In this document: positions 32,505 to 34,822 of the stretch, piece after piece
Numbering within the stretch: the stretch's first letter is position 1
How the letters are laid out: each line of letters begins with the position of its first letter
Source: Desulfobulbaceae bacterium
GTDB taxonomy: Bacteria > Desulfobacterota > Desulfobulbia > Desulfobulbales > Desulfocapsaceae
Direction of reading: 5' to 3'
DNA: 64,000 nucleotides
Assembly (NCBI GenBank): GCA_008933635.1
Contig: WBUQ01000006.1
Location: forward strand, 1-64,000
The notes under the pieces: generated by a model
What the model was told of the DNA's origin: nothing
What the model saw: the letters and a program-made list of their open reading frames with translations, nothing else
Database searches by the model: none
Translations under genes and position numbers: made by a program

Positions 32505-33773
32505 ATGAAATCAGTCAGCAGGATCTGCCGGATATTCCAGTTGTTGCCAGGCATGTTTCAGCAAAACGCGCCGCATATCCTGTCCTGGTGTATCTGCGTA
32601 TCTGCAACTCTCCTCCTCAATCCGGCCTTCGCTACCGCAGCTGAAACCCCGTCGCAGCGACAAAATCTGACGATTTTCTATTCAGCCAACAACCTCGGAG
32701 AGACAGACCCTGGCGGGTGAGGCTCGAACCAACTGGGCGGTCTGTCCAGGAAGGCATTCCATCTCTCTGCGGCTGCAAGGTCGGGAGCGTCGGCTATGCT
32801 CCTGCTCGATGCTGGAAATCTTCTGTTCAAGCCAGAATCAACGGCAACTGTCCAGGAAAGGATCACCGCTTCGACAATAGCGGAGATATACGGACAATTA
32901 CCGTATGGTGCCGTTGCCGTAGGCCCCTATGATCTTCCCGCCGGGATCGATTTTCTCCGGGAGACGACAGGGGCGAAGGGTTTTCCATGGCTATCGGCGA
33001 ATGTGGTCGACGATGATGGGCTTCCGGTGTTCGAGCCATTCCGGAAGATCAGCAAGAATGGCCTCACTATCGGCGTCATTGGTCTTACCGGGCCCGGTTC
33101 CGTCTTGCCAGGGCGAATACAGATTGTCGACTGGAACCTCGCGCTGCCTCCGCTGTTGCAGACCCTTTCGCCTTCCTGCGACCTGATCATCGTCCTCTCC
33201 TCCTTGGCCGAAGAGGAAAACAGGCGGCTCATGGAAGCTCATCCCGCTGTCGACATCCTGATCAGCGCCGATCGCCGCCTTGGAAACGTGCACCCGAAAA
33301 TAGTCAGGAACACCCTGACTGCACAGGTGGTGAGCCAGGGCAAGTACCTGGGTAAACTCGATATTGACTGGCAAAAGGATCGGCCTTGGTCACGGGACTT
33401 CAGTCAGGAATCTGCCAGCCTCCAGGAACAGCTTGCCCTGATCAATCGCCGTATCCAGCGTACTGAGATTCAGCAGCAGAAAAACGGTACCCAGGAACGG
33501 ATTCGACTTCTCAGAGAGCAACGGGAGCAGGTCGTTGCGCGTTTGGCAGCCATCAATTCCCAGCAGGATTTATTGGCGCAGGATCCTGAGTCGCTCAACA
33601 CCTTCTCCAATTCCTTCATCGCTCTGTCGCGAAATCAGCCGGAAAGCCGGGATGCCAATGAGGCGCTGGCAGCAATGCAGCAGGAAATAGCCCGGAGCTA
33701 CGTCGACGGGCAGCACCGGGACGATTCGTCATCGAGCTGCGGCCAAAGCAAGCAGAAGTGGCAGAACTACTGA
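32505..33773 (+). CDS. UshA-like secreted selenoprotein (UGA read as selenocysteine)
   Basis: Read through the in-frame TGA at 32718, this is a 422-residue protein with Sec72. Residues 1-45 form a signal peptide (hydrophobic core, then AFATA before AETPSQ). NLTIFYSANNLGETDP, then GGUGSNQLGGLSRK and MLLLDAGNLLF, follow the order of UshA/5'-nucleotidase-like proteins, where EPCGC-type and LLDAGD motifs occur. The metal ligands of that fold are missing: GNHE is GPYD (140-143) and GHSH is SADRR (254-258). A coiled coil spans about 302-357 and a Ser-rich tail with one Cys ends the chain. A SECIS-like hairpin follows the UGA. The coding frame and family resemblance continue on both sides of the stop. 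Alternatives are a recent nonsense mutation or a sequencing error. The start could also be ATG 32553. Confidence 0.82.
32718..32749 (+). promoter_or_regulatory. Bacterial SECIS element with its UGA codon
   Basis: UGA (32718-32720) is followed after 12 bases by a 6-bp stem, CTGGGC (32733-32738) with GTCCAG (32744-32749), including one G-U pair and a GGUCU loop. CC at 32729-32730 can pair with GG at 32753-32754 across a small internal loop. As I recall it, the E. coli fdhF SECIS has the same 18 bases between UGA and an apical GGUCUG, the SelB contact. Confidence 0.82.
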
Positions 33774-33892: not shown

Positions 33893-34822
33893 TCAGCAGC
33901 CGAAGGCCTTCTGCAGGTTCGGGATGGTCTGTTTCTTGCGGCTCATCATGCCATCTACCCACATCGAGGAACCCTGCAGCTTGCTGTCGAATGCCTTCTC
34001 AATCAGCGCCGGATCGTCGGAAAGGACAACCAGGTCGGTACCTTCCTTGACGACGTCGGTAAGCATGAGCAGTACTGAATGACGACCTTCAGCCTTGACT
34101 TCACCCATGGCCTTGAGCAGATCTTCACGGATATCTGCTACCTGATCGAGGGTGGCGAGCTCGAGCTGACCTACGCCTACCTTGTTGCCCTTCATGTCGA
34201 AATCTTTGAAATCACGGAAGAGCAAATCTTTGACCGGTACGCCGGATACGGAAGACTTGGCCTTCAGCATCTCCATGAACAGGTCGTCGGTGTTGGCAAC
34301 ACCGGCAACGCCCTTCAGTTCGGCGACGGCAGCTTTGTCCTCATCGGTGCAGGTCGGGGATTTGAAGTTAACGGTATCGCTCAGGATTGCAGCAAGCATG
34401 CCGCAGGCGACATTCTTCGGAATGGCGATTCCGGCATCCTTGAACATCTTGTTCAGAACGGTGCCGGTGCAGCCGACGGGTTCGGCCCGGAAGAGAATCG
34501 GGTTGTTGGTGGTGACATCACCGATCTTGTGGTGATCAACGATCATAACGACATTGGCTGTTGCCAGGTTGGCCGGTCCCTGGGCGAGATCGCTGAAATC
34601 AACGAGGGCGATATCCTTGCCTGCGGCATCAGTCAGCAGTTCGGGAGCGGTCAGGCCAAACTGCGCAAGCAGCATTTTGGATTCCGGATTGAGAGCGTCA
34701 GCGCTTGTCTGCATGCAGGCCTTGGCGTCCTTCCCCTGGGCTTTCAGGAGAGCTGCAAGGGCGATTGACGACATGACAGAATCGGTATCCGGGTTGGAAT
34801 GGCCAACTACACAAATTGTCAT
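33893..34822 (-). CDS. ppaC: Manganese-dependent inorganic pyrophosphatase
   Basis: A 309-residue family II (DHH) pyrophosphatase that hydrolyses PPi in the cytosol. GHSNPDTDSVMSS at the start, VDFSD, the DHH motif in MIVDHHKIGD, and a C-terminal substrate region (SRKKQTIPNL) are all present. The start has a textbook ribosome site, GGAGG seven bases before the ATG. In sulfate reducers a soluble pyrophosphatase pulls sulfate activation forward; whether this organism reduces sulfate is not shown here. Confidence 0.96.
   Translation of the reverse strand: MTICVVGHSNPDTDSVMSSIALAALLKAQGKDAKACMQTSADALNPESKMLLAQFGLTAPELLTDAAGKDIALVDFSDLAQGPANLATANVVMIVDHHKIGDVTTNNPILFRAEPVGCTGTVLNKMFKDAGIAIPKNVACGMLAAILSDTVNFKSPTCTDEDKAAVAELKGVAGVANTDDLFMEMLKAKSSVSGVPVKDLLFRDFKDFDMKGNKVGVGQLELATLDQVADIREDLLKAMGEVKAEGRHSVLLMLTDVVKEGTDLVVLSDDPALIEKAFDSKLQGSSMWVDGMMSRKKQTIPNLQKAFGC

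What the first reader, a model, noticed from the sequence alone, without database searches (positions are those of the whole stretch)
32505..33773. An unannotated selenoprotein: UshA-like protein with Sec72 and an fdhF-like SECIS
Two open segments in the same frame are separated only by a TGA at 32718. Reading through joins a signal peptide to an UshA-like domain, with family-like sequence on both sides (NNLGETDP, then GSNQLGGLSRK and LLLDAGN). The TGA falls where Cys-containing EPCGC-type motifs occur in related proteins. The next bases fold into a 6-bp stem with a GGUCU loop, at the same 18-base distance from UGA as I remember for E. coli fdhF. Standard gene calling would report only a truncated protein from 32796.
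Basis: partly seen in the sequence, partly recalled or inferred. Interest (0 to 1): 0.92.

Follow-up and report, generated by a model that had tools for sequence, protein, structure and literature searches.

The report
UshA-like selenoprotein of a known family
The gene is almost certainly a real selenocysteine-containing protein from a Desulfoprunum-type sulfur bacterium, but its family was already catalogued; the only unusual point is that it has lost the cysteine that normally sits two residues before the selenocysteine.

Summary
TGA 32718-32720 interrupts one reading frame with homology on both sides. The read-through protein scores 308.5 bits (cut-off 275) against NCBIfam NF041198, 'UshA-like (seleno)protein', a family listed in selenoproteome papers since 2008. 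The genome has selA, selB, selD and a tRNA-Sec. At this codon 71 of 72 sampled genes, the window's included, have TGA; all 17 UGA-free homologues that carry the motif have Cys there. A 6-bp stem with a GGUCU loop starts exactly 18 bases after the UGA, as in E. coli fdhF; an equivalent stem is in 68 of 71 Sec genes but 2 of 17 Cys genes. So this is a new member of a known family, not a new selenoprotein.

What is unusual is local. The near-invariant PCGU motif reads PGGU here, PRGGU in the isolate Desulfoprunum benzoelyticum and PCGGU in a third relative. These three also lack the tetraheme tail of the long form and carry a Cys near the C-terminus. The fold is 5'-nucleotidase-like but the usual metal ligands are missing, so nucleotidase chemistry is unlikely and a redox role is inferred.

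The parts
32505..33773 (+). UshA-like selenoprotein gene (ATG 32505 or ATG 32553 start; stop TGA 33771-33773), 422 aa with Sec72
   Evidence: NF041198 308.5 bits vs cut-off 275; six-frame genome search finds it over the cut-off with 1 TGA inside
32718..32720 (+). UGA codon read as selenocysteine (Sec72)
   Evidence: TGA in 71 of 72 sampled genes including this one; Cys (TGC/TGT) in all 17 UGA-free homologues with the motif
32733..32749 (+). SECIS-like hairpin: 6-bp stem CUGGGC/GUCCAG, loop GGUCU beginning 18 bases after UGA
   Evidence: Folds alone at -7.8 kcal/mol, z -3.0; same offset as fdhF; equivalent stem in 68/71 Sec vs 2/17 Cys homologues
32709..32720 (+). Motif P-G-G-U in place of the family's P-C-G-U: Cys at Sec-2 is Gly here
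   Evidence: Alignment of homologues
32505..32644 (+). Probable signal peptide region (hydrophobic stretch, then AFATAAETP)
   Evidence: Read directly from the translation; not tested with a predictor
33726..33773 (+). C-terminal tail SSSSCGQSKQKWQNY with a lone Cys (Cys412), where long-form relatives continue into a tetraheme cytochrome domain
33893..34822 (-). Convergent neighbour: manganese-dependent inorganic pyrophosphatase (start taken at MTICVVGHS), a conserved neighbour of this gene across the order; context, not part of the selenoprotein
   Evidence: NF003877, 387 bits; next to the UshA-like gene in more than 30 loci

Best explanation
32505-33773 encodes an exported UshA-like selenoprotein of the NF041198 family. 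UGA 32718 is decoded as Sec by the genome's SelA/SelB/SelC/SelD system, guided by the hairpin just downstream. Shown: homology across the UGA, Sec/Cys exchange at this codon among homologues, the Sec machinery and the hairpin. Inferred: actual Sec insertion, export, and function. The protein has a 5'-nucleotidase-like fold but the family mostly lacks the usual metal ligands, so it is most likely a redox protein whose Sec sits in the loop near the former metal site (function: about 0.5). In this short, heme-free form electrons would have to come from a partner protein. The Cys at Sec-2, the usual CxU partner, is gone, so the selenol must be resolved by another thiol (perhaps the C-terminal Cys) or by a small thiol. 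The stated confidence is for the selenoprotein identity and family, not for the redox function.
For: NF041198 match over cut-off. SelB, tRNA-Sec with UCA anticodon, SelA, SelD itself with an internal TGA. 137 of 146 genomes of the order and 77 of 93 of the family have a match, nearly all with one TGA. TGA at the same column in 71/72 sampled genes; Cys in UGA-free homologues. Hairpin in 68/71 Sec vs 2/17 Cys genes, Fisher p about 3e-12, not corrected for relatedness. The cultured relative D. benzoelyticum has the same arrangement. dN/dS about 0.36 between the two closest relatives. AlphaFold model pLDDT 89.8, best PDB matches are 5'-nucleotidases. Metal-ligand columns mostly not conserved.
Against: No expression or selenium-incorporation data. 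The hairpin is not energetically special in the longer stretches (32721-32752, z -0.4; 32715-32764, z +0.4). The genus evolves this gene fast: 51% identity to D. benzoelyticum while the adjacent pyrophosphatase is 94% identical, so relaxed constraint or a changed role is possible. The name-giving Cys of the motif is missing. The redox function rests on inference only.
Confidence: 0.95

Rival explanations
1. The UGA is a true stop: a nonsense mutation in a former Cys gene, leaving a decaying pseudogene.
For: Fast evolution in this genus; loss of Cys at Sec-2 and of the heme tail.
Against: TGA at the same codon in 70 of 71 other sampled genes from across the phylum; Sec machinery present; hairpin kept; frame otherwise intact; dN/dS below 1 in the closest pair.
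Confidence: 0.03
2. The UGA is read as another amino acid (for example Trp) or read through without SECIS.
For: None found.
Against: UGA-free homologues with the motif have Cys, never Trp, at this place; a tRNA-Sec with anticodon UCA and the rest of the Sec system are present.
Confidence: 0.01
3. The selenoprotein is a genuine metal-dependent 5'-nucleotidase in which Sec plays a side role (a rival to the redox function, not to the selenoprotein identity).
For: 5'-nucleotidase-like fold and sequence profile; the HMM is named UshA-like.
Against: By profile alignment, the columns equivalent to the Asp-x-His, Asp, Asn-His and two later His ligands of 5'-nucleotidase are N and L, N, P and Y, S, and D/R in the window and are mostly non-ligand residues across the family; only the first Asp survives, in 12 of 35 members.
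Confidence: 0.05

Closest known systems
NCBIfam NF041198, UshA_like_PCGU, UshA-like (seleno)protein (COG0737, CxU)
   Same: Sequence score over the curated cut-off; Sec at the same column; signal-peptide-like N-terminus; same gene neighbour as other members in the order
   Different: PGGU instead of PCGU; no C-terminal tetraheme domain (match ends near profile position 394-400 of 519)
NCBIfam NF049981, UshA-like (seleno)protein family 2 (CxxU)
   Same: Same superfamily, weak match
   Different: 52 bits, far below its cut-off of 140
E. coli UshA / CD73 / SoxB metallophosphoesterases
   Same: Fold and distant sequence profile
   Different: Metal ligands mostly not conserved; the Sec motif is not found in them (5'-nucleotidase alignments)
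E. coli fdhF SECIS
   Same: GGUCU loop starting 18 bases after UGA
   Different: Stem sequence differs

Membership tests
NF041198 UshA-like (seleno)protein | Whole-protein HMM score over the curated cut-off (275) | tested here: met
   308.5 bits; 299.7 in the six-frame genome search
NF041198 UshA-like (seleno)protein | Sec (UGA) or Cys at the motif position | tested here: met
   TGA at codon 72, aligned with TGA in 70 of 71 other sampled genes and Cys in UGA-free homologues
NF041198 UshA-like (seleno)protein | Name-giving PCGU motif, Cys two before Sec (CxU) | tested here: not met
   PGGU in the window; PRGGU in D. benzoelyticum. The curated membership rule is the score, which is met; so filed as a member with an aberrant motif
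NF041198 UshA-like (seleno)protein | C-terminal tetraheme cytochrome part of the long form | tested here: not met
   No CxxCH in the window protein; also absent from 11 sampled relatives with an intact CGU motif, so not essential
Bacterial selenoprotein | selA, selB, selC, selD in the genome | tested here: met
Bacterial selenoprotein | SECIS hairpin directly after UGA | tested here: met
   Comparative test; single-sequence energy is significant only for the short segment
Bacterial selenoprotein | Selenium in the product | not testable with these tools
   Needs 75Se labelling or mass spectrometry
Metal-dependent 5'-nucleotidase (UshA) | Dinuclear metal ligands and catalytic His | tested here: not met
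   Profile alignment and column counts

The most novel reading that the evidence does not exclude
In one Desulfoprunum lineage the Sec site has been rebuilt: a CxU pair became CxxU (PCGGU), the Cys was then lost at least twice (PRGGU, PGGU), while the heme domain was shed and a Cys near the C-terminus took over as the resolving thiol for Sec.
Probability: 0.2. Interest if true: 0.4.

Novelty: new member of a known kind. Interest (0 to 1): 0.22.

Why it matters
It confirms a selenoprotein that a plain gene caller would truncate. It also supplies a small natural series (PCGU, PCGGU, PRGGU, PGGU within one genus) for asking whether Sec in this uncharacterised family needs its neighbouring Cys. 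The function of the family itself remains unknown.

Tried and rejected
A scan of the GTDB genome contigs with the single protein found no relatives, probably because its short patterns were too specific to this protein; HMM and protein searches of whole genomes replaced it. Rfam found nothing in the window at gathering thresholds. Pfam gave no domain for the window protein. Minimum-energy folding of a 50-base stretch did not recover the SECIS stem, so the argument rests on comparison with Cys homologues. A scan for further UGA-interrupted genes in the window gave no other convincing candidate (judged by eye, not by homology). The idea that a C-terminal Cys accompanies every altered motif is weakened by Desulfofustis glycolicus, which has CGGU, no heme tail and no C-terminal Cys. 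An in-house count of tail-less members wrongly included L029 (its sequence starts too close to the locus end for that script; one search shows 4 heme motifs), so 11, not 12, is used here.

Full report
Observation. The TGA at 32718-32720 lies inside one long frame; from ATG 32505 the read-through product is 422 residues with U72. The quoted motifs are there. NCBIfam model NF041198, 'UshA-like (seleno)protein', matches residues 35-411 with 308.5 bits against a cut-off of 275, so homology covers both sides of the UGA. A six-frame search of the genome finds the same place with one TGA inside.

Is it selenocysteine? The genome has SelB, SelA, SelD, itself with an internal TGA, and a tRNA-Sec of 69 bits with anticodon UCA. 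In the order, 137 of 146 genomes carry a relative, nearly all with exactly one TGA. Of 72 genes read in detail, including the window's, 71 have TGA at this codon; the exception has CGA and has also lost the neighbouring Cys. Twenty further homologues without an internal UGA were fetched: the 17 that have the motif carry Cys (TGC/TGT) exactly there; the other three are distant relatives without the motif.

SECIS. The stem CUGGGC/GUCCAG with loop GGUCU begins its loop 18 bases after UGA; in E. coli K-12 fdhF the GGUCU also begins 18 bases after UGA. Because GGU CUG also encodes a conserved Gly-Leu, the loop alone proves little. The control is that Cys homologues mostly encode the same residues: a stem of at least 5 bp at this place is found in 68 of 71 Sec genes and 2 of 17 Cys genes (p about 3e-12, relatedness not corrected). 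Energy alone is not convincing: significant for the 19-base hairpin (z -3.0), while in longer stretches it is unremarkable (32721-32752 keeps the stem at z -0.4; 32715-32764 folds otherwise at z +0.4).

Known or new? Known. UshA-like CxU selenoproteins are listed in the 2008 ocean survey (PMC2398784), in a 2022 review (PMC9312934) and as NF041198 in a 2026 review (PMC13188914).

What is different here. The Cys two before Sec is nearly invariant in the sample. The window has PGGU. Same-genus relatives show PCGU with tetraheme tail (L083, L084), PCGGU without tail (L082, same motif and tail as L115, Desulfobulbus sp. Tol-SR) and PRGGU without tail (L045, on a contig of the same length, and with the same protein ends, as L169, Desulfoprunum benzoelyticum DSM 28570, a named strain). 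A named isolate with the same kind of change makes an assembly artefact an unlikely cause of the pattern, although the window's own codon was not checked against reads. The three tail-less members with altered motif each have a Cys within 15 residues of the C-terminus, unlike the 11 sampled tail-less members with intact CGU; but Desulfofustis glycolicus has CGGU and neither heme tail nor terminal Cys. These are three species of one genus, so the correlation is a lead only. The window protein is 51% identical to D. benzoelyticum's over the domain while their pyrophosphatase neighbours are 94% identical, lower than most other pairs at that distance; dN/dS for the closest pair (L045, L082) is about 0.36.

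Neighbourhood. Downstream and convergent lies a manganese-dependent inorganic pyrophosphatase, found next to the UshA-like gene in more than 30 loci across the order. Upstream and divergent is a protein with a response-regulator-like receiver and, judged from its translation, a nucleotide-cyclase-like domain, also kept in some relatives. No operon partner suggests a function.

Function. The AlphaFold model (pLDDT 89.8, pTM 0.85) matches 5'-nucleotidases best. The profile aligns to snake-venom and human 5'-nucleotidases, and the columns of their metal ligands (ligand identities from general knowledge of this enzyme family) are occupied by mostly non-ligand residues. The Sec loop follows the first strand, close to where the first ligands would be. 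A redox role fits Sec, the CxU motif of relatives and the tetraheme tail of long forms, but is inference.

Verdict. The reading as a selenoprotein is well supported; the implied novelty is not. This is a new, somewhat aberrant member of a known family. Interest 0.22.

Noticed in passing
window 32709-32720; L082, L045, L118: Motif drift PCGU, PCGGU, PRGGU, PGGU within Desulfoprunum relatives; CGGU also in Desulfofustis glycolicus.
   Followed up: partly
L026 (G111:C168): A tetraheme member with PSGR: both the Cys and the Sec (CGA) are lost.
   Followed up: no
L101, L103: Cys homologues that still carry the SECIS-like stem with GGTCT, as if converted from Sec recently.
   Followed up: no
L047 and other long forms, last 20 residues: 53 of 58 sampled tetraheme members have a non-heme Cys close to the C-terminus, often in a CP motif.
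   Followed up: partly
window 33893-34822: A manganese-dependent pyrophosphatase next to the UshA-like selenoprotein gene is conserved across the order, with no obvious functional reason.
   Followed up: partly
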